64,000 bases of DNA from an uncultured Ruminococcus sp. (GTDB taxonomy: Bacteria; Bacillota; Clostridia; Oscillospirales; Ruminococcaceae): the NCBI GenBank assembly GCA_902780505.1, contig CACZFN010000005.1:51561-115560 (forward strand). The letters run 5' to 3'. This document shows, in pieces, positions 2,650 to 63,346 of this stretch (position 1 is the first letter of the stretch; each line of letters begins with the position of its first letter). A program made the translations under genes and the position numbers. The notes under the pieces were generated by a model that did no database searches, was not told where the DNA came from, and was given only the letters and a program-made list of their open reading frames with translations.

Positions 2650-3435
2650 ATGATACTTGACCACATTTTTAACTCTACAAGTGAGAATATGTCCGATATC
2701 CCGGATGAATCTGTTGATCTTGTAGTTACATCACCTCCATATAACATCGACATTCAATACGGAAATAAAACTGAAAAAGGCAGCATTCTTGAAAGCAAAG
2801 GAATAAAATATGCCGATAAAATGGATGAAGAAGATTATAGAAAAATGCTTCTATCCGTTTTCTCCGAATGCAAACGAGTAATTAAGAAAAATGGATCAGC
2901 ATGGGTTAACATAAAGAATAGATATGATAACGGAATTGTTATTCCTCCATTTTGGCTTCTTGAGATGTTTCAAGATATGTATCTGAAAAACCTTATAGTC
3001 TGGAATTTCGACTGGGGTGGTTCAACAAACAAACGCTTTGCACCCAGATATGAATTTGTATTTTGGTTTGTTAAAGACAAGAATGATTATACATTTAATC
3101 TTGATGACATTAAAATTCCAGCTCTAAACTATAGGCCGGATAGATATAAAAGTCAATTAAAGAACCCAACGGATGTTTGGCGTATTTCCATGGTTTCTGG
3201 TAATTTTGAGGAAAGAACATCTCATCCTGCTCAATATCCTGAAGAATTGATTGAACGAATTGTTCTTGCTGGAACAAATAAAGGTGATATTGTTTTAGAT
3301 CCTTTTATGGGAAGCGGCACATCTGCAGTTGTGGCAAAAAAACTCGGCAGACATTATCTTGGCTATGAAACTGTTCCGGAATATTGCCAAATTGCTGAAG
3401 AGCGCTTATCAAGAGTTTCGGAGGATAGAGTATAA
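2650..3435 (+). CDS. DNA methyltransferase, beta class (N4-cytosine or N6-adenine), first of two
   Basis: This 261-residue protein has the catalytic motif IV TSPPYN at residues 27-32 and the S-adenosylmethionine motif I DPFMGSGTS at about 217-225. That order (IV before I) defines the beta group of amino-methyltransferases. SPPY is seen in both m4C and m6A enzymes, so the modified base is not settled. The closing segment ERLSRV is typical of the family. It is followed after 2 bases by a second methyltransferase and then by endonuclease genes, so it is the protective half of a type II restriction-modification system. A GAGGTG ribosome site lies 11 bases upstream of the ATG. Confidence 0.9.
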   Translation: MILDHIFNSTSENMSDIPDESVDLVVTSPPYNIDIQYGNKTEKGSILESKGIKYADKMDEEDYRKMLLSVFSECKRVIKKNGSAWVNIKNRYDNGIVIPPFWLLEMFQDMYLKNLIVWNFDWGGSTNKRFAPRYEFVFWFVKDKNDYTFNLDDIKIPALNYRPDRYKSQLKNPTDVWRISMVSGNFEERTSHPAQYPEELIERIVLAGTNKGDIVLDPFMGSGTSAVVAKKLGRHYLGYETVPEYCQIAEERLSRVSEDRV

Positions 3436-3437
3436 TA

Positions 3438-4223
3438 ATGAGTGAGATCTTTTATAAGATTGGTGATTGTAGAGAGCTTTTGAAAGATGTACCAAGTCAA
3501 TCAGTAAAACTGGTGGTAACATCACCGCCATATAATATTGGTAAGCCTTATGGAAAGTATTCTGATAAGATGCCACTTGAAGAATGGAAAGAACTAATCA
3601 GAGCTGTAACAAAAGAAGTGTATAGAATATTGACACCAGATGGAAGCTTCTTTTTAAACCTTTCTCCTGTTCCATATGGAAAGGATAAAGAAATCCTGCC
3701 TTTGCCGTTCATCGGGTATGAAATCATGCAGGAGTGTGGATTACACCTGAGAAACATGATAACATGGACTTTTAACAATATGCAGAATTGTACAAACAGA
3801 TTATCAGGTCGATATGAGAATATCCTATGGGGAGTGAAAGACCTGAGTAACTATGTTTTCAATTTAGATGATATTCGTATTCCATATATAACCCAAAACG
3901 ATAAACGTCTTGAAGGTGGAAAAGGCAGAAATCCTACAGATGTATGGTATTTTGACCGTGTAAACAACATGACAAAAAAGAAGCTTGGCTTACAGCATCC
4001 TACTGTATATCCGCTTCCAATGATCATGAGGATTCTGCAAATGTCAAGCAATCCGGGGGATACAATACTCGATCCTTTTTTAGGCAGTGGATCTTCACTT
4101 GTGGCGGCCAAACTGCTTGACAGAAACGGAATAGGATTTGAATTGGATGCAAAGTATGTTGACGAAATTGAAATGAGATTAGCACAAGAAGGGGTAAGAC
4201 AATTATCTCTTTTTGAGAATTGA
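3438..4223 (+). CDS. DNA methyltransferase, beta class, second of two
   Basis: This protein is also 261 residues and clearly paralogous to its upstream neighbour. It has TSPPYN at 28-33, DPFLGSGSS at about 212-220, and the shared middle block RYE...WGVKD..NYVFNLDDIRIP. The start is 2 bases after the previous stop, so translation is probably coupled. Two separate methyltransferases in one type II system usually mean an asymmetric recognition sequence whose two strands are methylated by different enzymes (established for such systems). Divergence in the target-recognition middle part supports two specificities. It overlaps the region just before the endonuclease start at 4232. Confidence 0.9.
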   Translation: MSEIFYKIGDCRELLKDVPSQSVKLVVTSPPYNIGKPYGKYSDKMPLEEWKELIRAVTKEVYRILTPDGSFFLNLSPVPYGKDKEILPLPFIGYEIMQECGLHLRNMITWTFNNMQNCTNRLSGRYENILWGVKDLSNYVFNLDDIRIPYITQNDKRLEGGKGRNPTDVWYFDRVNNMTKKKLGLQHPTVYPLPMIMRILQMSSNPGDTILDPFLGSGSSLVAAKLLDRNGIGFELDAKYVDEIEMRLAQEGVRQLSLFEN

Positions 4224-4231
4224 GGAAATGT

Positions 4232-5002
4232 ATGTTATATCAAGAATTATTAGATTCATGTCGTGATCGCTTTGATGAATTTTTTCAAAACGTACCTATT
4301 TTTCATAATCAGTTCAGGTGGAATGAATATAATAATGCCTGCTACCAATTGATGTATTCTGAATATTTGGAAGATAGTATTGCCACCGTAAAAGAATTGA
4401 AATCAAAAATTCCGGAACTCACAGACTTGTGTAAGCAATGCGGTTCCTTCTTCATTCCAGCAAGAAATAAGAGCCTTCCCAAATATGATGTAATAATGGG
4501 ACAACAGCACGAAGAAGCTCTTATGAAATATCTTTCACAGAAGCTTAATACTGAAGTATGCCGTGCTGATCTTGAAGATCGCAGTATGCCTGATTGTAAA
4601 GTATTAAAGTCTGATGGCACAGTGGCTGCTTATTTTGAAGTGAAGTTTCATGGAGCCCCGTTTGTTTGCGCGTTGCAAAAGACCGGAAGGTATTGTTATG
4701 AAGGAAGTGCCACACTGGATTATAAAAAAATAGAAAAACAACTTGGAATAATCGAAGGATTAGAGGCCCCGGTATTCTATGTTCATTGGATTGAATATCC
4801 ATGCTTAAAAGGTGTATTCTACGAGACAAGTGATCAGGTTAAGCAATACATTGCTGAACAACATGAAACATTTGAAAGAGAAAAACGTGAAGGCGATGAA
4901 ATGAAATCAGCTAAAGCTGTCTATTTGAAAAAGATGTATTCTCCACTTCTGCAAATGAAAGACTTTGAGTCTTTTGTTACGGAATTAAGTGCCTTACTTT
5001 AA
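4232..5002 (+). CDS. Type II restriction endonuclease candidate, PD-(D/E)XK fold
   Basis: I chose the ATG at 4232 because GAGGAA lies 5 bases upstream; the in-frame ATG at 4220 has no ribosome site. The 256-residue product has an N-terminal helical part and then a PD-(D/E)XK core. Helix GQQHEEALMKYL (90-101) supplies the first acidic residue. P120-D121 and, 15 residues later, E136-V137-K138 form the metal-binding and catalytic triad. The C-terminal block APVFYVHWIEY...GVFYETSDQV (179-203) recurs in the next gene. It would cut DNA at the site protected by the two methyltransferases. No database match could be run; the call rests on the motif and operon context. Confidence 0.8.
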   Translation: MLYQELLDSCRDRFDEFFQNVPIFHNQFRWNEYNNACYQLMYSEYLEDSIATVKELKSKIPELTDLCKQCGSFFIPARNKSLPKYDVIMGQQHEEALMKYLSQKLNTEVCRADLEDRSMPDCKVLKSDGTVAAYFEVKFHGAPFVCALQKTGRYCYEGSATLDYKKIEKQLGIIEGLEAPVFYVHWIEYPCLKGVFYETSDQVKQYIAEQHETFEREKREGDEMKSAKAVYLKKMYSPLLQMKDFESFVTELSALL

Positions 5003-5018
5003 TTGAGAGGTGTTTAAT

Positions 5019-5552
5019 ATGAGTGGTCAAGAATTCATTTCTTTCTGTTGCTCTCCTACTATGCAACTTCCTTTGGTTATGGATAATGCTGATATCTGTA
5101 CTTCTGATACTGGCATTATCGACTATTTCATTCAGTACATGAAAACGAAATACAAAATTAATATCGTGGCATGGGTGCCATCATCGTGTGCGTATCCCAA
5201 TTATATGTTTCTTGGCGGCGATAGAGGAATCTTAGCATATATTTCATTTCGATATATTCATTCTCCTTCAAGTATTACATCAGAGGATATAAGTTGGGAA
5301 AGCAAAGAGGTCCTGAAAACAGTTCGTGCAGCTACTTCACAATTGGACAGGCCCGTATTCTATATTTATCTTATAAATACAGCGGATCGCATCGGAATAT
5401 ACTTTGAAACAGATGAACAGATTCGAGACCGTTGGTTATCAACCGGTTTTTCATCTGATATTTACACGCCTGTCACAGCAGAAATGGGAGATTTTCAAAA
5501 CCTATTATCAATTTTACTTGATTTAAAGCGTAACAGTGTAAAGGTTTCATAA
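5019..5552 (+). CDS. Endonuclease-like paralogue with degenerate catalytic site
   Basis: Start ATG 5019 follows GAGAGG by 8 bases. The 177-residue protein aligns with the second half of the preceding endonuclease. RPVFYIYLIN...GIYFETDEQI (111-135) matches APVFYVHWIEY...GVFYETSDQV, and DIYTPVTAEMGDFQ matches KMYSPLLQMKDFE. At the equivalent catalytic positions P60-N61 and S76-F77-R78 replace P-D and E-V-K with the same 15-residue spacing, so all three catalytic residues are changed (D to N, E to S, K to R). It lacks the N-terminal helical part. It is probably a non-cutting partner subunit, specificity subunit or inhibitor. An adjacent bidirectional terminator ends the operon. Confidence 0.7.
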   Translation: MSGQEFISFCCSPTMQLPLVMDNADICTSDTGIIDYFIQYMKTKYKINIVAWVPSSCAYPNYMFLGGDRGILAYISFRYIHSPSSITSEDISWESKEVLKTVRAATSQLDRPVFYIYLINTADRIGIYFETDEQIRDRWLSTGFSSDIYTPVTAEMGDFQNLLSILLDLKRNSVKVS

Positions 5553-5557
5553 TATGT

Positions 5558-5605
5558 AATATAGCAAGAGCAGCTGCCTTATCGGACAGCTGCTCTTGCT
5601 ATATT
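5558..5605. terminator. Bidirectional terminator between the R-M operon and the transglycosylase gene
   Basis: Perfect 19-base arms (5558-5576 and 5587-5605) with a 10-base loop, AT-rich at the base. It overlaps the last two bases of the convergent gene. Confidence 0.85.
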
Positions 5606-6965
5606 AAAGATGCTCAGAGATATATTTCAGCCCAAGGAACAGTTTGCTGGGATAAGCTGCTGAAAAGGCATGGATATCTGTATAGTTAGGGAGAATTTCA
5701 CATAGTTTACGGTGTTGCATTACTGCATGAAGGCCTATCAACTGTCTGCTATAATAATTTGCTTCTGAGTTTGTTGATTTCATGGAATACAGTTGCTTTA
5801 TATTGTGTACTGTCTGAGCCTGCAAACAAGCAGGACAACCACATAAAGGCATATCGTCAGGGACTTCGTTCAATTTTATATATCCGGTTTTTTCAAATCT
5901 CATGCTATTATCTATATTGATTCCGCCCATAAAGAATTTACTGAAACCTACTTTAGATGGAGTTGGATCGAATACAATTCTTGTTGATTCATCACTGCCG
6001 TCGCCAACACGTCTAACGGGAGAGGCGGCATCAAAAGATGTGGCACCACAGTAATAATTGAGTGCAATGTTATTATATCCGCCACATCCTAAAGCATGAA
6101 TCGGCCTATCTCCAACGAGTTCTCTGACAATTTTGCTTGCTCTTGCAGGGACGATAGTTTCTATAAACCCACGTTTTCCTATTCGTGATAGATTTATATT
6201 ATTGTACCAACTTGGATCTACTTGTTTATAGCTTGCAACACCGCCAAGAGCAAAGCCCCAAAAGTGAGCATTATACTGTTCTTCCAAGCTAAGATTATAT
6301 TTTGTGTTTTCGGAATATTCTGCGGGGGTATCACCATGTACTGTCGCTAAAACATAAGGATAGAAATCGGGATGCTCTTTGATGTACTTAACTGTAAGTT
6401 CAAGCAAAGCATTATTGATATCATTTTTATCAAGCGAAGCAAGAAATCTCACGAGTCTTGGATTTTTCTTCTCTCCGTCTTTTTCTGTGTATTTGCCGCC
6501 TAAATCAAACCCGACAACAATATCGCACTTGATTCTATCTGCAAAATCATAATATTCAGCGGCAGCTTCAAGAATCCTCTCTCTGAATAAGGCGAGATTG
6601 TAATCTACTGACTCTGCAATCTGCTTCATAATATTGTAAGCACCAGAATCAAGAAGAAACACTTTCTGATTAAAATTATAATCTGGAGAAGAATAGCCAC
6701 GATAAATCTCACCCTTCTTTATTAAAGAAGCGCGAATGTAATTGTACAAGTCACCAACAGTATTGAAGCGTCCGATTTCGTCGAATAGTTTACTGCTAAA
6801 CGTATGCGGGAATGAATTGTTGATATAGAAGTAATTGATTAAAGCAGGTGTATTACCGGTTAACTCTGCGTAAACAATTTCTCTGTCTTTGTCACCGTTT
6901 CCGCCGCCATAATTGTAAACCTGAAAGAAAGATGGGACTGGTAGATCTTTTCCGTGAACATTCAT
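5604..6965 (-). CDS. Transglycosylase of the tRNA-guanine transglycosylase superfamily, DpdA-like candidate
   Basis: The start at 6965 has a perfect AGGAGG 6 bases upstream; an in-frame GTG at 7031 has only a weak site. The 453-residue protein carries the superfamily hallmarks: DSGAYN (106-111, general-base Asp), HALGCGG (290-296), SFDAASPVRR (310-319, nucleophile Asp312) and the zinc site CGCPAC (375-380) followed by His413. Housekeeping Tgt enzymes are about 370-380 residues with FDCVLPTR and GLSVGE, and these loops differ here. The divergent loops and the neighbouring restriction-modification genes favour a DNA-directed paralogue (DpdA inserts 7-deazaguanine into DNA) over queuosine tRNA modification, but substrate is inference. 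No preQ0 synthesis or dpdB-K genes are in the window. Confidence 0.75.
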   Translation of the reverse strand: MNVHGKDLPVPSFFQVYNYGGGNGDKDREIVYAELTGNTPALINYFYINNSFPHTFSSKLFDEIGRFNTVGDLYNYIRASLIKKGEIYRGYSSPDYNFNQKVFLLDSGAYNIMKQIAESVDYNLALFRERILEAAAEYYDFADRIKCDIVVGFDLGGKYTEKDGEKKNPRLVRFLASLDKNDINNALLELTVKYIKEHPDFYPYVLATVHGDTPAEYSENTKYNLSLEEQYNAHFWGFALGGVASYKQVDPSWYNNINLSRIGKRGFIETIVPARASKIVRELVGDRPIHALGCGGYNNIALNYYCGATSFDAASPVRRVGDGSDESTRIVFDPTPSKVGFSKFFMGGINIDNSMRFEKTGYIKLNEVPDDMPLCGCPACLQAQTVHNIKQLYSMKSTNSEANYYSRQLIGLHAVMQHRKLCEILPNYTDIHAFSAAYPSKLFLGLKYISEHL

Positions 6966-7052
6966 AATAAACCTCCTTAGTAATGCTCTGTTGTTGTCCG
7001 TGCCATCTGTCAAAATGTTACTGTATGTCACAGCTTTTCCGTCTATGTAATA

Positions 7053-56091: not shown

Positions 56092-56838
56092 ATGATTCGC
56101 ATTGCAGCCGTAGATGATGATAGACTTTTTTTACAGACATTAAAGGATATCATTGCTTTACAAATTGATATTCATCAATATTCCTATGAATTGGATTTAT
56201 ATGATGATTCAGAAATGTTTTTGAATTGTCAAATGACAGCACCATATGATCTTGTGTTTTTGGATATGGATATGCCTAAATATGATGGTATTTCCATAGC
56301 AGAAAAAATGTCTGCTCAAAACATTGATACAACAGTAATTATAATTACTGAACACGAGCATTACGCTCGAGTAGGCTATCGATATCATGTATTTCGTTTT
56401 GTACGTAAAGGGTATCTTACAGAGGAAATTCAAGAACCCATAGAATCATTTCTGTCAGAAAAAGTAAAGATGAAGCATAATATTATCTTGAATACAGACA
56501 ATGGTATGGTAAGGAGTATATTGCCGAGTGAAATTGTATATCTTGTATCAGTTGGACACTATATTTCTCTTAAAAAATATGGTTCTTCTGATATTATTAA
56601 TCTTATTTCAGGCAAATATACGATGAATCAGTTTGAAACGCAGTTGGAGCCGTATGGATTTTTAAGAATTCACAAATCATATTTAGTGAATTTTCGATAT
56701 GTTATTAAAATCCAATACGATAAAATGACAATCTCAGAAAGTGTGGGATCATGCAAAATATTACCGATTAGCCACAAGAAAAGTTCGGATATACGAAAAA
56801 AAATTGATTTACTATTTCGGAGGGAAGATAAACTATGA
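56092..56838 (+). CDS. LytTR-family response regulator (AgrA-like)
   Basis: This 248-residue regulator has a receiver domain (2-125) with acidic pocket D8-D10 and phosphoacceptor D58 in LVFLDMDMPKYDG. A LytTR DNA-binding domain follows (about 138-240), with EIVYLVSVGHYISL, FLRIHKSYLVNFRYV and KMTISESVGSCKILPIS. This is the architecture of AgrA/ComE regulators that bind pairs of direct repeats. It overlaps the histidine kinase start by 4 bases and heads the agr-type locus. A GGAAGGGAAATAAAT site precedes the ATG. Codon use is clearly more AT-rich than in the housekeeping genes to the left. Confidence 0.93.
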   Translation: MIRIAAVDDDRLFLQTLKDIIALQIDIHQYSYELDLYDDSEMFLNCQMTAPYDLVFLDMDMPKYDGISIAEKMSAQNIDTTVIIITEHEHYARVGYRYHVFRFVRKGYLTEEIQEPIESFLSEKVKMKHNIILNTDNGMVRSILPSEIVYLVSVGHYISLKKYGSSDIINLISGKYTMNQFETQLEPYGFLRIHKSYLVNFRYVIKIQYDKMTISESVGSCKILPISHKKSSDIRKKIDLLFRREDKL

Positions 56839-58151
56839 TGATGATTATAAAACTATTTGGTATTATTTCAGAGTGTATGATCATTACGTATTTTTTATGT
56901 AAATATTTTGGACTTAAGCATCACAACTATGCAGTCGTAAAAGCAAGTTTATTTTTTATAATAATAGCCATTTATGATTATGCTTCTGGAGAATACATTT
57001 CATCAGAATTTGCTACTTTTGGTGGCTTCTTTATATTGACATTTCTGTTCTCTTTTCTATTTTTAAAGGGAAATATGTTAGAGAAGATAGCAACCTGCGC
57101 ATTAACTTTCATTCTTATTGCAGCAATTAATTTGCCCATCCTTGCTATTTCAAGTGCTATTACAAATCAATATCCGGATGCCATTTTGAACAGCAATGAC
57201 AAAACGGATGTTCTGATTTTAGATACTTTTCTGTCTAAAATTATTTATTTTGGTGTTTTGCAAGCTATATTGCTTTTTCGGAAAAAAGAGAAAATTGTAC
57301 TAAAAATGAAAGAATGGATTGTTATTATAGTTTCTTTTATAATATCCATTCTGATTGCCTCATTGGTTCGTTTGCTGTTGATCACACATAGCACACAGCC
57401 TTTTTTTTATTTTTTAATTGCGTTATGCCTAACAGCACTTGATTTGATTATTCTTTTATTTATTATATGGGTCAATCGCTCCGTTTCAATTCGAGAAGAA
57501 AACTTACAAATCAAATTGAGATTAGAGAAGCAAGAAAAAGAAACAAAACTTATTAACGCTAAATATGAAGAAACTTCCATGCTAAAACATGACTTTAAAA
57601 AACACCTTCATAACATTGATAAACTGCTTGATAGAAATGAATTAGATAATGCAAGGAATTATATGAAAGGATTGCTGGAACAACAAAATGATTCCTTATT
57701 ACGTACTGTTCATTCGGATCAAACAATTCTGGATTCTCTGATAAATGAAAAAATCCAAGAGGCAAAAGAAAAGAGGATAGATATTACGTGCCGATTGATT
57801 ACAATCATACCGGATGAGTTGCAAATGGATGTGTGTTCGATATTAACTAATTTAATTGATAATGCAATCGAGAACTCTCCCCCTTCTATGAATAATAGAA
57901 TTATCGTAATTATACAGAAATCACACGGATATTATCGTATAACAGTAAAAAATAATATCAATCATTCTGTCTTAAAGTACAATCATGACTTGCATTCTAA
58001 AAAAACAGATGGAGAGCAGCACGGCTGGGGTCTAAAATCTGTACGCCGTGTAGCTGAAAACCACGATGGCAGAGTTGATGTTTACGAAGAAAACGATATG
58101 TTTATTGTCGCAGTAATTCTGCAAGATGACTGCTCACCCCAAAAATCGTAA
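56835..58151 (+). CDS. GHKL sensor histidine kinase (AgrC-like)
   Basis: This 438-residue protein has about six or seven N-terminal membrane helices (residues 1-215), the usual AgrC-like polytopic peptide sensor. The cytoplasmic kinase has H252 in LKHDFKKHLHN, N-box ILTNLIDNAIENS and G-box GWGLKSVRRVAENH. This is the HPK10/GHKL class. It should detect the peptide made by the AgrB/AgrD-like pair downstream and phosphorylate the LytTR regulator. Its stop codon overlaps the direct repeats that precede the agrB promoter. Confidence 0.92.
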   Translation: MMMIIKLFGIISECMIITYFLCKYFGLKHHNYAVVKASLFFIIIAIYDYASGEYISSEFATFGGFFILTFLFSFLFLKGNMLEKIATCALTFILIAAINLPILAISSAITNQYPDAILNSNDKTDVLILDTFLSKIIYFGVLQAILLFRKKEKIVLKMKEWIVIIVSFIISILIASLVRLLLITHSTQPFFYFLIALCLTALDLIILLFIIWVNRSVSIREENLQIKLRLEKQEKETKLINAKYEETSMLKHDFKKHLHNIDKLLDRNELDNARNYMKGLLEQQNDSLLRTVHSDQTILDSLINEKIQEAKEKRIDITCRLITIIPDELQMDVCSILTNLIDNAIENSPPSMNNRIIVIIQKSHGYYRITVKNNINHSVLKYNHDLHSKKTDGEQHGWGLKSVRRVAENHDGRVDVYEENDMFIVAVILQDDCSPQKS

Positions 58152-58216
58152 CTTGATGCAGGAAAGTGTAACTTGGTGCAAAAGCTATTGAATTATTCTG
58201 CGATATATGGTAGAAT
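58148..58216 (+). promoter_or_regulatory. LytTR-type direct repeats and promoter before agrB
   Basis: GTAACTTGATGCA (58148-58160) and GTAACTTGGTGCA (58168-58180) repeat with a 20-base period. Then TTGAAT (58188-58193), 17 bases, TAGAAT (58211-58216). The layout is the same as at 55896-55978: direct repeats, -35 within 8 bases, and a TAGAAT -10. It is likely activated by the LytTR regulator. Confidence 0.7.
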
Positions 58217-58239: not shown

Positions 58240-58821
58240 ATGATAGAAAAGTTTTCAAAACAAATCACAAGTCATCTGATTCTTAAAGATGTGATACAAT
58301 CGGAAACGGCTGAAGTATATCGATATGGAATTGAGCTCGTCATATCGACATTTATTGGCATTATTCTCGTATTATTATGCGGGTTGATTTTTGATATGTT
58401 TTGGCTAACGGTTCTATACTATGTTATATTCTTTATAATTCGACGATTTGCTGGCGGATACCATGCTAATACATACATGGGCTGTAAGGTTGTTCTGGTC
58501 GTGTCAACAATTATGGTTTTGGGGATTACGAAATCCCTTGCCTTTCTAAAATCATATTCGTTGATTATCCACATCTTGCTTTTGATTTTTTCGATATCCA
58601 CTCTGATTCAATTATCTCCGATTGATAACGAAAACAAGCCTTTGGACACAGAACAGGAAAAAAGATGCAATTTAATCGTATCAATATTATCGATTACTTT
58701 TGCTGTAATAAGCTTGCCCTTATACTATCTGAAGGTTGAGTGTGCTTGTATCATTGCGTTGACATTGGTTTTAATCGCTGTTATGCAAATTGTTGAGTTT
58801 TCACGGAGGGGGGGCGAATAA
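58240..58821 (+). CDS. agrB: AgrB-like accessory gene regulator protease
   Basis: ATG 58240 follows AGAAAGGCG; an upstream in-frame GTG at 58207 lies inside the promoter. The 193-residue membrane protein has about five to six helices. RRFAGGYHANTYMGC (68-82) contains catalytic H75 and C82, spaced exactly as His77/Cys84 of Staphylococcus AgrB. It cleaves the C-terminal part of the AgrD precursor and forms a cyclic (thio)lactone at the inner membrane. The ribosome site of the next gene lies inside its last codons and that gene starts 1 base after its stop. Confidence 0.95.
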   Translation: MIEKFSKQITSHLILKDVIQSETAEVYRYGIELVISTFIGIILVLLCGLIFDMFWLTVLYYVIFFIIRRFAGGYHANTYMGCKVVLVVSTIMVLGITKSLAFLKSYSLIIHILLLIFSISTLIQLSPIDNENKPLDTEQEKRCNLIVSILSITFAVISLPLYYLKVECACIIALTLVLIAVMQIVEFSRRGGE

Positions 58822-58822
58822 A

Positions 58823-59449
58823 ATGAGCAATAGCAACAAATTCGTTCTGAAGTCGGTAGCAAAGCTTGCTAAAAGTGCTGCTCGCCGAGCTTATGGAGCT
58901 GCTTCCTTCTTTGATTTTCACCAGCCAAAGGAACCGGCAAATCTGAAAGCTATGATGAGAAAATTCGCTGCCGCAATCATGGCTGCAGCTACGCTGGCAA
59001 CATCTGCGGTATGCAATATTAGCGCAAGTGCAGCAAATATCACGGATGCCAACTTTAACATTACAATTCAAAGTGGACTTAAGAGTGCTAACGCTTATTC
59101 TCGTAGATTGAAGGAAAACGATTCTTCCACCTATGTGAATTATGCAACACGTGCTGATCATACGACACCTGCTTCTGGTCCGTATAAGTTCAAATGCTAT
59201 GTATATGGTTCAGATACTTCTACGAGCGGACTGGTAGATTTGTCAAGTTACGACCAGTATGGTAACGCAAGACCGGATGCTGTCGTAACTCGTGGTTCAA
59301 TCGGATATATTTACCAGCTGATCCACGAAACTTTTGGTGACAATGCGTATGCCCAGTTATATGGAGGACAATACCAAAGTTACACTGGTACAGCAAAGGG
59401 ATGCTGGAGTTCTGACAGTGTAGGTTCAGGTATAGTATACAACGCATAA
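58823..59449 (+). CDS. AgrD-like autoinducer precursor fused to a signal peptide and secreted domain
   Basis: This 208-residue ORF has three parts. Residues 1-42 are a full AgrD-type precursor: an amphipathic basic helix (SNKFVLKSVAKLAKSAARRAYGAA), a candidate pheromone core S28-F-F-D-F32, then HQPKEPANLK matching the conserved QPKEP tail of cyclic-lactone precursors. Ser28 would give a lactone ring where most have Cys. Residues 44-70 are a Sec signal peptide ending SASA. Residues 71-208 are a secreted domain (ANFNITIQSG...YKFKCYVYGS...LIHETFGDNAYAQLY...KGCWSSDS) with two cysteines (C125, C194). It vaguely recalls small secreted bacteriocin-like proteins; I do not recognise a family. No stop or ribosome site separates the parts. 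Confidence 0.8.
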   Translation: MSNSNKFVLKSVAKLAKSAARRAYGAASFFDFHQPKEPANLKAMMRKFAAAIMAAATLATSAVCNISASAANITDANFNITIQSGLKSANAYSRRLKENDSSTYVNYATRADHTTPASGPYKFKCYVYGSDTSTSGLVDLSSYDQYGNARPDAVVTRGSIGYIYQLIHETFGDNAYAQLYGGQYQSYTGTAKGCWSSDSVGSGIVYNA

Positions 59450-59470: not shown

Positions 59471-59522
59471 TATGCCCGAGAATTGTAGCAATTATACAAC
59501 TATTGCATAATCCTCGGGCATA
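59471..59522. promoter_or_regulatory. Long hairpin between the AgrD fusion and the lipoprotein gene
   Basis: TATGCCCGAG / CTCGGGCATA, 10-base perfect arms 32 bases apart, with an inner GCAAT / ATTGC pair. No T run follows. It may partly terminate, or protect the agr message from 3' decay. Confidence 0.55.
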
Positions 59523-59543: not shown

Positions 59544-60389
59544 ATGAAAAAACATTTTTTGATTGCTGCAACTATTTCCAGTATGCTGTGTTTTTTCGGA
59601 TGTTCATACTCTAAAATAGATAACGCTTTACAAGAAAAGATACATGAAGAACCCGATTCAGCTATAACAGTAGATGACGAAAACAGTGTGGTGCGCGATG
59701 TTGATGATACGCCTATAAATTACGAAGGCATTATATATGCAGGCATAAATGATTCTATTTCAGATTATTACTGCTATACAGATCAGTTCGGCGAAAAAAA
59801 CGAATTCGGAATAAAAGGATTAACATATACCTTAAATAAAGTATCTGTTTATGATTCTATTAATGATTGTGATATAACTCCAGAAATGTGCAAATATATC
59901 GATTTTGGTGATACTTTTAACGATATGACTAAGCACAATAGCTTTATTGTTGTTGATATGTCAGTAGCTTATAACAAATCATCAGAGGGTGGTGATGAAA
60001 TTATACAACCGATTTTTGAATTTGATTCAATATATCACATAGGTGATCCGTTTAAAGATTTTCATCCCTCAACGGAAGCAGATGAACCAGGTAAGGAGAA
60101 TTATATCTCCGTAGAACCACGGATTGTATATTTTTCCGAACAACCCCAATCAGGCGATAAAGACATATATGGAAATATCATCAGTGAAAAGTCGGCTAAC
60201 TGGTTTAGAACAGCATTGAAGGATGGCGAAAGCATCGAATTTGAAATAGGGATTATATGCTCTCCTGACTTGATTGAGAATAACAATGTATTTTTAGCTC
60301 ACAGATTCCAAACTCCTCCCTCTTATGAGCCTATATATCAATTTGATTTATTAGGAGGAATAACAAATGAAAAAAATGCTCAGAATTGA
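59544..60389 (+). CDS. Lipoprotein of the agr-linked ABC cluster
   Basis: This 281-residue lipoprotein has lipobox CFFGC with C20 and GGAGG 7 bases before the ATG. After an acidic linker (25-55) comes a globular domain with strands GLTYTLNKVSVYDSIND and NSFIVVDMSVAYNKSS, and a late YFSEQPQSG...WFRTALKDGESIEFEIGII block. Such telluric-like beta-sandwich domains (a measured signal followed by VVDMSV) are seen in DUF5027/DUF4352-type lipoproteins; assignment is tentative. It overlaps the first permease by 23 bases, so it belongs to the ABC unit, possibly as self-immunity or a periplasmic-side partner. Confidence 0.75.
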   Translation: MKKHFLIAATISSMLCFFGCSYSKIDNALQEKIHEEPDSAITVDDENSVVRDVDDTPINYEGIIYAGINDSISDYYCYTDQFGEKNEFGIKGLTYTLNKVSVYDSINDCDITPEMCKYIDFGDTFNDMTKHNSFIVVDMSVAYNKSSEGGDEIIQPIFEFDSIYHIGDPFKDFHPSTEADEPGKENYISVEPRIVYFSEQPQSGDKDIYGNIISEKSANWFRTALKDGESIEFEIGIICSPDLIENNNVFLAHRFQTPPSYEPIYQFDLLGGITNEKNAQN

Positions 60390-61260
60390 ACTAAAAAAAG
60401 CTTTCTTTTCTAAGTCTTTTCTTGCCGGATTAGGTATTCTACTTTTATTATCATTTCTCAGTGGATTATATATGATAGAAAATTGGAGCGAGTATAATCC
60501 TAATGCAATCAACAGCACATATATAAAGAATGGTGAAATTGTGATCAATCCTATCATTCCCGTTTATTCATTTTTCTGTGCTTGGCTTGGGGGGGATACT
60601 CTTTCTTTGGCGGGTACAATGTTCTTCTATTTTCTTCCTGTAGGAGCTGCTTTGCCTTATGCGTGGTCATACCATACAGAAAGAAAATGCGGATATATAA
60701 AGAATGTAATTACAAGAACATCACGAAAAAAATATTATGCTTCAAAGTCCATTGCAGTATTTAGCACAGGCGCAATAGTCATTTTAATCCCTTATATTGT
60801 TAATATATTTATGGTTAGTGCTTTTATCCCTTGTATAAAGCCCTGGACTGGATATAATATGTATAATTTTGTATACTTTGGCACTTTGTGGTCAGACTTA
60901 TTTTTTACAAAGCCTATTATACATACATTATTTTATGTGCTTTTAAACTCATTGTATGGCGGATTGTTCGCTTTATTAAGCTTTAGTATTTCTATGTATA
61001 TTAAAAACATTATTCCTATTATTTTTTCTCCATTTTTAATTATAATAATTGCGGGGTACTTAGAAAATGTTATTTATGAGAAATACTTTGCAAACTCACT
61101 ATTATATTATGAGTTAGTTCCTACTCACTTTCTTAGGTCAAGAGATGTTCATTATATGTCAATCGGATGGGTAATCACAATAGAAACCTTGATTTTGTTT
61201 TTGGTATCTGTCATACCCATATTTATAATTGGAAGGAAATGGAAGAATGAGCTTAATTAA
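60367..61260 (+). CDS. ABC-2 type permease, first of two
   Basis: This 297-residue protein has six hydrophobic segments. The N-terminal MKKMLRIELKKAFFSKSFLAGLGILLLL, where a basic amphipathic helix runs into helix 1, is typical of ABC-2 exporter permeases. An extracytoplasmic loop carrying SEYNPNAINSTYI follows, and later helices include GYIKNVITRTSRKKYYASK (cytoplasmic coupling region). AGGAGG is 8 bases before the ATG. It pairs with the next permease and the ATPase to form an exporter or immunity pump, common next to peptide-pheromone and bacteriocin genes. Confidence 0.85.
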   Translation: MKKMLRIELKKAFFSKSFLAGLGILLLLSFLSGLYMIENWSEYNPNAINSTYIKNGEIVINPIIPVYSFFCAWLGGDTLSLAGTMFFYFLPVGAALPYAWSYHTERKCGYIKNVITRTSRKKYYASKSIAVFSTGAIVILIPYIVNIFMVSAFIPCIKPWTGYNMYNFVYFGTLWSDLFFTKPIIHTLFYVLLNSLYGGLFALLSFSISMYIKNIIPIIFSPFLIIIIAGYLENVIYEKYFANSLLYYELVPTHFLRSRDVHYMSIGWVITIETLILFLVSVIPIFIIGRKWKNELN

Positions 61261-62071
61261 GTTTATCCGATTTGACATAAAGAATGGAATAATGAGAAGG
61301 CTTTATGTATACTTAGTTTATTCTTTGTTTATTGTTGTATCCGTTTGGTTTTTTCAAGGGAAATTACATTCCTATGAAATTGAAAAATACTCAATCGGAG
61401 ATTGTTTATTATTTCTTTATGGTGGAGCAAAGGAATATGTTCCTAAAACTGGCGAGGTATTTGAAATGCCTTATTTATGGCTTGTGAATCATCTTTTAAT
61501 ACTCTATTTTACATTGAATTACACGGATAATGATCTGACCGGATTTGGACAGCAGCTTATTTATCGTTCCGGCGGAAGAGTTATCTGGTGGCTATCTAAA
61601 TGTATATGGAATATTATTATGGTGTCTGGCTTTTATATAATAGGCATTATAATAACTCTCCTGCTTGGGATCAACAATGCTGAGTTTACTCTTGATATTT
61701 CTGAACATATATCATATGTTGTAAATTTTGGAGATCAGTTAAAGCAGAATCATACTCAAAAAATAGCGTTAGAAATACTATTATTGCCTATATTATATTC
61801 CGTTGCAATAAGTTTACTTCAAATGTCCTTGACTTTGCTTTTCAAGCCTATATTTTCATATATAGTTTCAAGTTCAATTTGCCTCTCATCAGCCTATAAA
61901 CTTACTCCCATTTTGATAGGGAATTTTTCAATGGCTGCACGTAATGATAAAATTGTTAATAATGGCGTTAGTAGCGCATTAGGTATAATTTCATTTTCCA
62001 TTATTATCATACTGAGTGTAATAATTGGCGTGTTAATTATTAGAAAATGCAATATCTTAAATAAGGAGTGA
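61247..62071 (+). CDS. ABC-2 type permease, second
   Basis: ATG 61247, after GGAAG, overlaps the previous gene by 14 bases. The 274-residue protein has six hydrophobic segments and a coupling region LTGFGQQLIYRSGGRVIWWLSKCIW equivalent to the RTSRKKYYASK segment of the first permease. The two probably form a heterodimeric membrane channel. No substrate can be assigned from sequence. The next gene starts 5 bases after its stop. Confidence 0.82.
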   Translation: MSLIKFIRFDIKNGIMRRLYVYLVYSLFIVVSVWFFQGKLHSYEIEKYSIGDCLLFLYGGAKEYVPKTGEVFEMPYLWLVNHLLILYFTLNYTDNDLTGFGQQLIYRSGGRVIWWLSKCIWNIIMVSGFYIIGIIITLLLGINNAEFTLDISEHISYVVNFGDQLKQNHTQKIALEILLLPILYSVAISLLQMSLTLLFKPIFSYIVSSSICLSSAYKLTPILIGNFSMAARNDKIVNNGVSSALGIISFSIIIILSVIIGVLIIRKCNILNKE

Positions 62072-62076
62072 ATAAT

Positions 62077-62727
62077 ATGTCAATAGTCCTTAAAAACGTA
62101 ACTAAGAAGATCGGTAGAAACATGATTATTAATGATGTTTCATGTAACATAGAAAATGGCAGTATTACAGGATTTAAAGGTATCAATGGTTCTGGAAAAA
62201 CTATGTTGCTTCGTTTAATATCTGGTCTTATTTATCCTACCTCTGGTACAGTTGAGATTGATAAAAAAATACTGGGGAAGGATATTGCTTTTCCTGAAAG
62301 CATTGGGATAATGTTAGAGAATCCTTCATTTATAAACTCGTATAGTGGATATGACAATTTACGAATGCTTGCTGATATAAAGGGATTGATTGATGAAGAT
62401 CGGATTTGTGAGGTTATGGATCTCGTCGGATTAAAAGAAAACGGTAATAAAAAATACAGAAAGTTCTCGCTTGGAATGAAGCAAAGATTGGGTATTGCTG
62501 CAGCAATTATGGAAAAACCTGGGATCATCCTATTAGACGAACCCACTAATGCCTTGGATGAATCGGGTGTCAAGTTACTGACTGAAATAATTATAGCCGA
62601 GAGAAATCGTGGTGCTACAATAATACTTTCGAGTCATGATGCTCAATTCTTAAATAAAACCTCTAATAGAATAATAGAGATATCAAATGGGAAAATAACT
62701 AACGAAAGGAACAATTATGACATTTAG
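62077..62727 (+). CDS. ABC transporter ATPase
   Basis: ATG 62077 follows AAGGAG by 8 bases. The 216-residue ATPase has Walker A GINGSGKT (35-42), an N-G-S variant, signature FSLGMKQRLG, Walker B IILLDEP, D-loop NALD and H-loop SSHD. SLGMKQR in place of LSGGQ is typical of the BcrA/lantibiotic-immunity subgroup that works with ABC-2 permeases. This supports a role in export of, or self-protection from, a peptide product of the neighbouring agr-type locus. The next gene begins inside its last codons. Confidence 0.9.
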   Translation: MSIVLKNVTKKIGRNMIINDVSCNIENGSITGFKGINGSGKTMLLRLISGLIYPTSGTVEIDKKILGKDIAFPESIGIMLENPSFINSYSGYDNLRMLADIKGLIDEDRICEVMDLVGLKENGNKKYRKFSLGMKQRLGIAAAIMEKPGIILLDEPTNALDESGVKLLTEIIIAERNRGATIILSSHDAQFLNKTSNRIIEISNGKITNERNNYDI

Positions 62728-63346
62728 AATATTAAATAACAGAAGAAAAATTGCAATTGTATCCATTTCTATATTATCTGTCTTACTGGTTTGTATATGG
62801 GCTATAAAGATACGCGACACTAATTCTAAGGCTTACAATGTTAGAGAAGAAATCTATGATTCAAATGATTATGTTGCTCTTAATGGTAATTATTTTTTTG
62901 AAGCAATAGAAAAAACCGATGGATATTCGATTAAACTTAACTCTGTAGAAATTGAAGATTATGATACTTTCTATAATTCATATAACCGAGAAGCTCCCAG
63001 TTATAACGGTGTCTCTCCAAAACATATTGTGATGATAAACGTTACGGTAAAAAACGATTCAAACACCGATGGCTGTCTTCCGTTTAAGGGGTTTGGAATT
63101 TACAATGGTGCTCTCTACATACCTATTGATTTTGAAGCTTTGAATATGATTGATCCTAAAATTAATGGTAGTAGTGTTTTACAATTGAAAGAAAACTCCG
63201 AAGTAACCCTATCATTTCCATTCTCGGCTATGCCATTAGACGAAGCAGTCAACTCAAATAAATTGAACGATGTTTTAGAAAATGAAGATTTATATTTATG
63301 TGTATGTGAATTCCCTGTAAGAAAACTAATCCTGATAAGAAAATAA
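62717..63346 (+). CDS. Membrane-anchored protein of the agr-linked ABC cluster
   Basis: This 209-residue protein has one N-terminal hydrophobic segment (about 12-29) and no lipobox, followed by an extracytoplasmic domain. YSIKLNSVEIEDYDTFYNSY and HIVMINVTVKNDSNTDGCLPFKGFGIY have the same strand pattern as the lipoprotein at 59544. The two are probably related beta-sandwich proteins, one lipid-anchored and one membrane-anchored. AAAGGAAC precedes the ATG, overlapping the ATPase gene by 11 bases. Function unknown. Last gene of the unit; no clear terminator follows. Confidence 0.72.
   Translation: MTFRILNNRRKIAIVSISILSVLLVCIWAIKIRDTNSKAYNVREEIYDSNDYVALNGNYFFEAIEKTDGYSIKLNSVEIEDYDTFYNSYNREAPSYNGVSPKHIVMINVTVKNDSNTDGCLPFKGFGIYNGALYIPIDFEALNMIDPKINGSSVLQLKENSEVTLSFPFSAMPLDEAVNSNKLNDVLENEDLYLCVCEFPVRKLILIRK

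What the first reader, a model, noticed from the sequence alone, without database searches (positions are those of the whole stretch)
58240..59449. AgrD autoinducer precursor fused in frame to a Sec signal peptide and a secreted domain
AgrD precursors are normally 40-60 residues. Here residues 1-42 have every AgrD element (amphipathic basic helix, S-F-F-D-F core, QPKEP tail), and the frame continues into a signal peptide and a 138-residue exported domain with no stop or internal ribosome site. AgrB cuts AgrD after the core, so cleavage would release a cyclic lactone and a C-terminal piece carrying its own signal peptide: one gene would give both signal and effector. Serine at the ring position predicts a lactone. 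AgrB with intact H75/C82 is encoded immediately before it.
Basis: partly seen in the sequence, partly recalled or inferred. Interest (0 to 1): 0.88.

Follow-up and report, generated by a model that had tools for sequence, protein, structure and literature searches.

The report
Signal precursor fused to secreted protein
A bacterium carries one gene that joins the precursor of a cell-to-cell signalling peptide to a protein that looks exported, so a single cut could release both the signal and the exported protein, but only one genome shows this and nothing has been tested in the laboratory.

Summary
Window 58823-59449 is one 208-residue frame. Residues 6-42 pass the curated AgrD model (25.4 bits, cut-off 19). 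Residues 44-70 look like a Sec signal peptide and 71-208 like an exported domain. AgrB with H75 and C82 lies directly upstream.

The fusion is exceptional. In one search's family sample the 102 other AgrD rows end at most 15 residues after the motif, against 166 here. All 20 other listed frames of 100 aa or more (two lists cut) are open upstream only.

The unfused parts exist nearby. In relatives agrD stops and is often followed by a separate Sec-secreted gene. The window's exported domain belongs to a group of separate secreted proteins, three of nine next to an agrD.

Best reading: a real gene fusion that removed the agrD stop and spacer. AgrB would cut after F32, close an S28 lactone and free a Sec preprotein. 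The fusion and its parts are shown; processing is inferred. Rivals: a vestigial AgrD part, an indel artefact. A new variant of a known kind, seen in one genome.

The parts
56092..56838 (+). agrA-like response regulator (receiver + LytTR)
   Evidence: Pfam Response_reg 1.2e-14 and LytTR 6.1e-12
56835..58151 (+). agrC-like GHKL sensor kinase
   Evidence: Pfam HATPase_c_5 2.9e-19
58143..58180 (+). two direct repeats of 18 nt, start-to-start 20 nt, probable LytTR/AgrA-type site (overlaps the last codons of agrC)
   Evidence: only place in the own genome at up to 3 mismatches; repeats of period 20-21 before agrB in 16 of 31 loci, mononucleotide shuffles mean 0.25
58188..58216 (+). promoter-like hexamers just after the repeats
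   Evidence: 9 of 12 matches with TG; weak, the scan found 50 sites against 42.7 in shuffles
58240..58821 (+). agrB, catalytic pair H75/C82
   Evidence: PF04647 1.8e-39; residues
58805..58814 (+). strong ribosome site of the fusion gene
   Evidence: -11.7 kcal/mol
58823..59449 (+). agrD-secreted-protein fusion gene, 208 aa
58823..58951 (+). AgrD part, residues 1-43
   Evidence: TIGR04223 over residues 6-42
58904..58918 (+). predicted lactone ring S28-F29-F30-D31-F32; predicted AgrB cut after F32
   Evidence: register with AgrD positions; the cut itself is inferred
58952..59032 (+). signal peptide, residues 44-70 (MMRK..SASA), predicted cut A70/A71
   Evidence: by inspection; highest hydropathy windows start at residues 48-52; 57% identical over 35 residues to a separate gene in L007, E 0.0012
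59033..59446 (+). exported domain, residues 71-208
   Evidence: profile of 9 unfused secreted proteins, window left out: 24.2 bits, rank 1 of 5001; other member sets
59471..59522 (+). stem-loop between the fusion gene and the next gene
   Evidence: -28.5 kcal/mol, z -4.83; no T-run, not listed by the terminator scan
59544..60389 (+). lipoprotein, companion gene
   Evidence: lipobox by eye; DUF5027 15.3 bits, cut-off 25
60367..62071 (+). two membrane proteins, probable ABC permeases (60367-61260, 61229-62071)
   Evidence: no Pfam match; permease role inferred from the ATPase behind them
62068..62727 (+). ABC ATPase
   Evidence: PF00005 4.4e-28
62717..63346 (+). second membrane-anchored protein
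   Evidence: DUF5028 23.7 bits, below cut-off 29.9

Best explanation
This is a true in-frame fusion of agrD with the neighbouring gene for a Sec-secreted protein. The ancestral layout was agrB-agrD-spacer-secreted gene; the agrD stop, the spacer and the secreted gene's ribosome site were lost, so the junction lies about where agrD used to stop. One ribosome site now makes one protein. The AgrD leader brings it to AgrB. AgrB would cut after F32 and close the ring on S28, giving a lactone signal that AgrC/AgrA read. The other piece, starting at H33, is an ordinary preprotein whose signal peptide (44-70) directs export and is cut at A70/A71. Signal and exported protein would come out one to one, both under agr control. 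Export of the C-terminal piece could replace the degradation of the AgrD tail that pulls the reversible AgrB reaction forward in S. aureus. Shown: frame, AgrD and AgrB identity, missing internal ribosome site, unfused relatives, repeats before agrB. Inferred: the route by which the fusion arose, cut, ring, export, signalling, and the role of the exported protein (perhaps an antagonistic or surface protein with the lipoprotein/ABC genes as its partners).
For: AgrD match above cut-off in the fused frame and by an independent model. The AgrD part is complete through L41-K42. AgrB has its domain and catalytic pair, and AgrC and AgrA their domains. Unfused relatives have agrD, stop, a spacer (53, 131, 202 and 208 nt in L152, L007/L096, L153, L120) and a secreted gene with its own ribosome site. 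A Sec-type protein is the next called gene in 38 of 93 AgrD loci by a crude caller; the rest were 8 AgrB, 19 other, 28 none called (at least two of the 38 are AgrB pieces). The signal peptide is 57% identical to that of such a separate gene, whose mature part is not in the window's domain group. The exported domain is found by a blind profile of nine unfused sequences (24.2 bits; 15.7 to 26.4 bits with other member sets, rank 1 each). No ribosome site at M44/M45 (-1.7), whereas 11 unfused starts have -3.5 to -12.9 kcal/mol. LytTR-type repeats before agrB.
Against: One genome only; two scans of genome contigs (one genome for each of 84,980 species; the own genome may be left out) confirmed no relative of the fusion. 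A single indel in the short linker would separate the frames. In S. aureus the length of the AgrD tail and Glu34 are reported to matter for AgrB (passage); here the tail is about twelve times longer and position 34 is Gln. In six loci that hold unfused members of the domain group no AgrD was found nearby, so that group is not always agr-linked. A first three-member profile did not find the window. No expression, mass-spectrometry or structure data; structure prediction was off.
Confidence: 0.5

Rival explanations
1. The AgrD part is vestigial. The fusion is real, but AgrB no longer processes it; the protein is just a secreted protein with a long N-terminal extension, cut by signal peptidase, and no signal is made.
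For: Tail length matters for AgrB in S. aureus. The fusion is seen once in the listed rows, as a recent or failing change would be.
Against: The AgrD elements are kept and score well; AgrB, AgrC and AgrA keep their domains; the genome has no other AgrD match at E 0.01 or better, so loss would leave the sensor pair without a signal of its own.
Confidence: 0.2
2. Artefact or recent indel: the genes really overlap by a few bases, agrD stopping at the start codon of the secreted gene, and one wrong or new base in the linker merges them.
For: Stops lie in another frame right at the junction. A natural overlap of agrD and a secreted gene exists in G283:C46.
Against: That overlap carries a strong ribosome site inside the agrD tail (-10.8 kcal/mol), the window has none (-1.7). 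No run of more than four equal bases at 58930-58965, no N in the window, and the two long genes checked by Pfam for this (DnaE 1153 aa, cation ATPase 910 aa) are whole, so indels look rare, though read data were not available. Only one overlap was seen among the 38 called secreted neighbours.
Confidence: 0.13
3. Two products from one mRNA: besides the fusion, the secreted protein is started at M44/M45, or a ribosomal frameshift in the linker gives a short AgrD.
For: Two adjacent ATG codons at the presumed old start and stops in the +1 frame. FsrB/FsrD of Enterococcus is a known in-frame pair with a separate second gene (passages).
Against: No ribosome site at M44/M45, though some real starts pair weakly too (window agrB -3.4, L081 -3.5). 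No slippery motif was looked for beyond reading the three frames.
Confidence: 0.12

Closest known systems
AgrD autoinducer precursors (TIGR04223; S. aureus agrBDCA)
   Same: Leader, ring with S/C at 28, proline-containing tail through L41, AgrB next door
   Different: 208 aa instead of 40-50; tail continues into a signal peptide and a 138-residue domain
Serine-type AgrD lactones (S. intermedius/pseudintermedius, C. difficile agr2, per passages)
   Same: Serine at the ring position
   Different: None is described as fused in the passages read
FsrB/FsrD of Enterococcus faecalis (passages)
   Same: Signal precursor in frame with a neighbouring gene; lactone signal
   Different: There the in-frame partner is the processing protein upstream; here it is a secreted protein downstream, and no second ribosome site is seen
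Unnamed group of small secreted proteins, weakly like Pfam DUF2712
   Same: Signal peptide, R-x-K..S-S and G-x-W-x-x-D motifs (alignment); next to agrD in L120, L152, L153
   Different: The others found here are separate genes; in six loci with members no AgrD was found. DUF2712 itself is only a sub-threshold match to two relatives, none to the window

Membership tests
AgrD (TIGR04223) | Profile score above curated cut-off | tested here: met
   25.4 and 30.8 bits, cut-off 19
AgrD (TIGR04223) | Amphipathic basic leader, ring S/C, proline-containing tail | tested here: met
   Leader moment reached by 0.5% of shuffles; S28, P38 and L41 present, Q at position 34
AgrD (TIGR04223) | Short precursor with a tail of about 14-15 residues | tested here: not met
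   166 residues follow the motif against at most 15 in 102 other rows; so it is a fusion containing an AgrD domain, not a plain AgrD
AgrD (TIGR04223) | Cognate AgrB with His/Cys pair adjacent | tested here: met
   PF04647 1.8e-39, H75, C82; one base separates its stop from the fusion start. That it is the cognate enzyme is inferred
AgrD (TIGR04223) | Processed to a cyclic peptide that activates AgrC | not testable with these tools
   needs expression and mass spectrometry
Sec-exported protein | Basic n-region, hydrophobic core, A-x-A cut site | tested here: met
   Residues 44-70 by eye and hydropathy; no trained signal-peptide predictor was available
Unnamed group of secreted proteins (L120, L152, L153, L193-L196, L198, L202) | Homology of the exported domain to unfused members | tested here: met
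   24.2 bits, E 8.6e-6, rank 1 of 5001 with the window left out; other member sets also rank 1. Against: a first three-member profile failed, the genome search with it did not report the own genome, and most single members do not find the window
DUF2712 (PF10916) | Score above Pfam cut-off | tested here: not met
   No match for the window; 14.8 and 14.6 bits for two relatives, cut-off 22

The most novel reading that the evidence does not exclude
A bifunctional quorum-sensing polyprotein: one AgrB cut both closes the lactone signal and frees a Sec preprotein, so signal and exported protein are made one to one from one mRNA, and export of the tail piece pulls the reversible ring closure forward. 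A cell that makes the signal would then necessarily make the exported protein.
Probability: 0.35. Interest if true: 0.85.

Novelty: new variant of a known kind. Interest (0 to 1): 0.62.

Why it matters
If the fusion works, AgrB accepts a tail about twelve times its usual length that carries an exported domain, which bears on how AgrB recognises and releases AgrD, and it ties signal production to the production of a secreted protein so that signalling without making that protein is impossible. Independently of that, the neighbourhood survey points to agrD followed by a secreted-protein gene as a frequent layout in this bacterial family (38 of 93 loci by a crude caller).

Tried and rejected
Rejected: that the fusion is one member of a common type. 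The 20 other listed AgrD rows with open frames of 100 aa or more (2, 4, 7, 7) were opened; their extra length is upstream of the AgrD start and they end within 8 residues of the motif. One further long frame, G303, is below the cut-off and is kinase-like by eye. Rows below 100 aa were not opened outside the family set, apart from eight of 46-99 aa, and the lists were cut, so a C-terminal extension elsewhere could be missed.

Led nowhere: plasmid and phage records, viral contigs, two genome-contig scans, solved structures (best E 0.65), PADLOC and PHROGs (best E 0.026 and 0.19), Pfam DUF4344 at 14.8 bits, cut-off 29.6. My first patterns for the repeats had a wrong gap and missed the window itself; corrected. 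Homology of the lipoprotein to those behind the unfused genes: rank 1 of 2001 but E 0.12, not significant. L196 (E 1.3e-4) was overlooked when the nine-member profile was made; adding it gives 26.4 bits; alone it ranks the window 16th. Further weak hits were not used. Papers: nine searches listed no title or abstract start about an AgrD with a C-terminal secreted domain; I saw passages of three papers and only listings of the rest, so absence from print is not established.

Full report
What is there. The frame runs from ATG 58823 to a stop at 59447-59449 and codes for 208 residues. One base separates it from the agrB stop, and it has a strong ribosome site (-11.7 kcal/mol). Upstream are agrB (58240-58821, PF04647, E 1.8e-39), an agrC-like GHKL kinase (56835-58151) and an agrA-like LytTR regulator (56092-56838). 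Downstream are a lipoprotein, two membrane proteins, an ABC ATPase and a DUF5028-like protein. The organism was not identified.

The AgrD part. TIGR04223 matches residues 6-42 at 25.4 bits in the whole protein and 30.8 bits in residues 1-43; the cut-off is 19. A model from 96 of the 104 rows (window, G303 and six partial or odd rows left out) gives 55.7 bits; the best of 2000 shuffles gives 9.3. S28 and L41 coincide with the positions of Cys28 and Leu41 that a review names for S. aureus AgrD; at the third named position, Glu34, the window has Gln (passages). Leader residues 6-23 are amphipathic. The predicted ring is S28-F32, a lactone, as known for S. intermedius and as the serine listed for C. 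difficile agr2 suggests (passages).

The rest of the frame. Residues 44-70 form a Sec-like signal peptide by inspection and hydropathy; no trained predictor was available. In the family search its best match outside the own genome is the signal peptide of a separate gene in genome G251, 57% identical over 35 residues, E 0.0012. There agrD ends with a stop, a 131-nt spacer follows, and the secreted gene starts behind its own ribosome site. The mature part of that G251 protein did not come up in the domain group; only the signal peptide is alike.

How unusual. In one search, 297 genomes of the family gave 104 rows. One (G303) is a false hit below the cut-off. Of the other 102 besides the window, none has more than 15 residues after the motif; the window has 166. 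In the family, order, class and phylum samples (297, 394, 391 and 264 genomes, partly overlapping) the 20 other listed rows with a frame of 100 aa or more were opened: the extra length is upstream, and at most 8 residues follow the motif. The match lists were cut. Two scans of genome contigs confirmed no relative of the fusion.

Ancestry of the parts. With a crude gene caller, the gene after agrD was called Sec-secreted in 38 of 93 family loci with at least 700 nt downstream (8 AgrB, 19 other, 28 none called; median gap of the 38 133 nt). At least two of the 38 are pieces of agrB and one looks like a membrane protein; on the other hand starts with weak ribosome sites, such as L081, were not called. 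One case (G283:C46) overlaps agrD by four bases and has a strong ribosome site inside the agrD tail. In the window the junction lies about where the G251 agrD stops, and no ribosome site is seen: -1.7 kcal/mol at M44 and M45, against a median of -2.1 for 82 internal ATGs and -3.5 to -12.9 for 11 unfused secreted starts. The window's own agrB start has -3.4, so a weak value is not proof.

The exported domain. A profile of window plus L153 found two other agrD-adjacent secreted proteins, L120 and L152, but a profile of L120, L152 and L153 without the window did not score the window above shuffles, and a search of 247 genomes with them did not report the own genome. That search did bring in more members: L193, L194 and L195 at E below 1e-33, L196 at 1.3e-4, and L198 and L202 at E 0.0022 and 0.0076, the latter two kept because they carry the shared end motif. 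A profile of nine unfused sequences from eight loci (L196 overlooked), window left out, scores the window domain at 24.2 bits (E 8.6e-6), rank 1 against 5000 shuffles. With only the six stronger members it is 18.6 bits, with L193-L195 alone 15.7 bits, and with L196 added 26.4 bits, each rank 1. Pairwise, L195, L194 and L202 of the nine rank the window in the top three; the other six do not (ranks 153 to 2704), nor does L196 (rank 16). I take the domain to be a diverged member of this group. Only L120, L152 and L153 were found next to an AgrD; none was found in L193, L194, L195, L196, L198 or L202, loci of about 3.5 kb, so the group is not always agr-linked. Two relatives resemble DUF2712 below the cut-off; the function is unknown.

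Regulation. Two 18-nt direct repeats with a 20-nt start-to-start distance lie at 58143-58180, about 60 bases before agrB, overlapping the end of agrC and just before a weak promoter-like site. No other such pair occurs in the genome at up to 3 mismatches. In 16 of 31 loci where agrB directly precedes agrD, including the window, a repeat pair of period 20-21 lies before agrB; 20 sets of mononucleotide shuffles gave 0.25 on average and 1 at most. Some of these loci are related to each other. This fits an AgrA/LytTR site that controls agrB and the fusion; binding is inferred. A strong stem-loop at 59471-59522 (z -4.83) separates the fusion from the lipoprotein gene and may tune expression.

Mechanism. 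The most likely working is given under the best explanation. The parts and their order are shown; cutting after F32, ring closure, export and signalling are inferred from AgrB biochemistry as reviewed (passages). The same review reports that AgrD tail length matters and that degradation of the cut tail drives the reaction in S. aureus. The first point is evidence against processing here; for the second, export of the tail piece offers a substitute sink, which is my own inference.

Verdict. Observation confirmed; interpretation partly supported; a new variant of a known kind, resting on one genome.

Noticed in passing
L174 (G769:C429:3682-3771): An AgrD that is in frame with an upstream AgrB-like sequence (277-aa frame), with a strong ribosome site (-13.4 kcal/mol) before the AgrD start, like FsrB/FsrD.
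   Followed up: partly
L178 (G541:C2:92402-92497): AgrD motif in frame behind what looks by eye like the first part of an AgrB, in a 111-aa frame.
   Followed up: no
31 agrB-agrD loci of the family, e.g. L076, L081, L115, L145: Direct repeats of period 20-21 before agrB in 16 of 31 loci, different words in different loci: probably diverging AgrA/LytTR sites that could be paired with their regulators.
   Followed up: partly
L104 (G283:C46:7408-7497): agrD stop overlaps the start of a 1276-aa secreted protein by four bases, with the ribosome site inside the agrD tail.
   Followed up: partly
L069 (G161:C1) and L090 (G153:C42): Two AgrD-like frames in tandem, one of them scoring low.
   Followed up: no
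L074 (G247:C4:148799-155360): Two copies with identical AgrD about 6.5 kb apart, each followed by an AgrB-like frame and a different large secreted protein.
   Followed up: no
window 2650-7031: Two genes that look by eye like DNA methyltransferases, two more frames and a protein with a sub-threshold match to queuine tRNA-ribosyltransferase (PF01702, E 3.1e-4, 20.4 bits, cut-off 26.3), perhaps a DNA-modification island.
   Followed up: no
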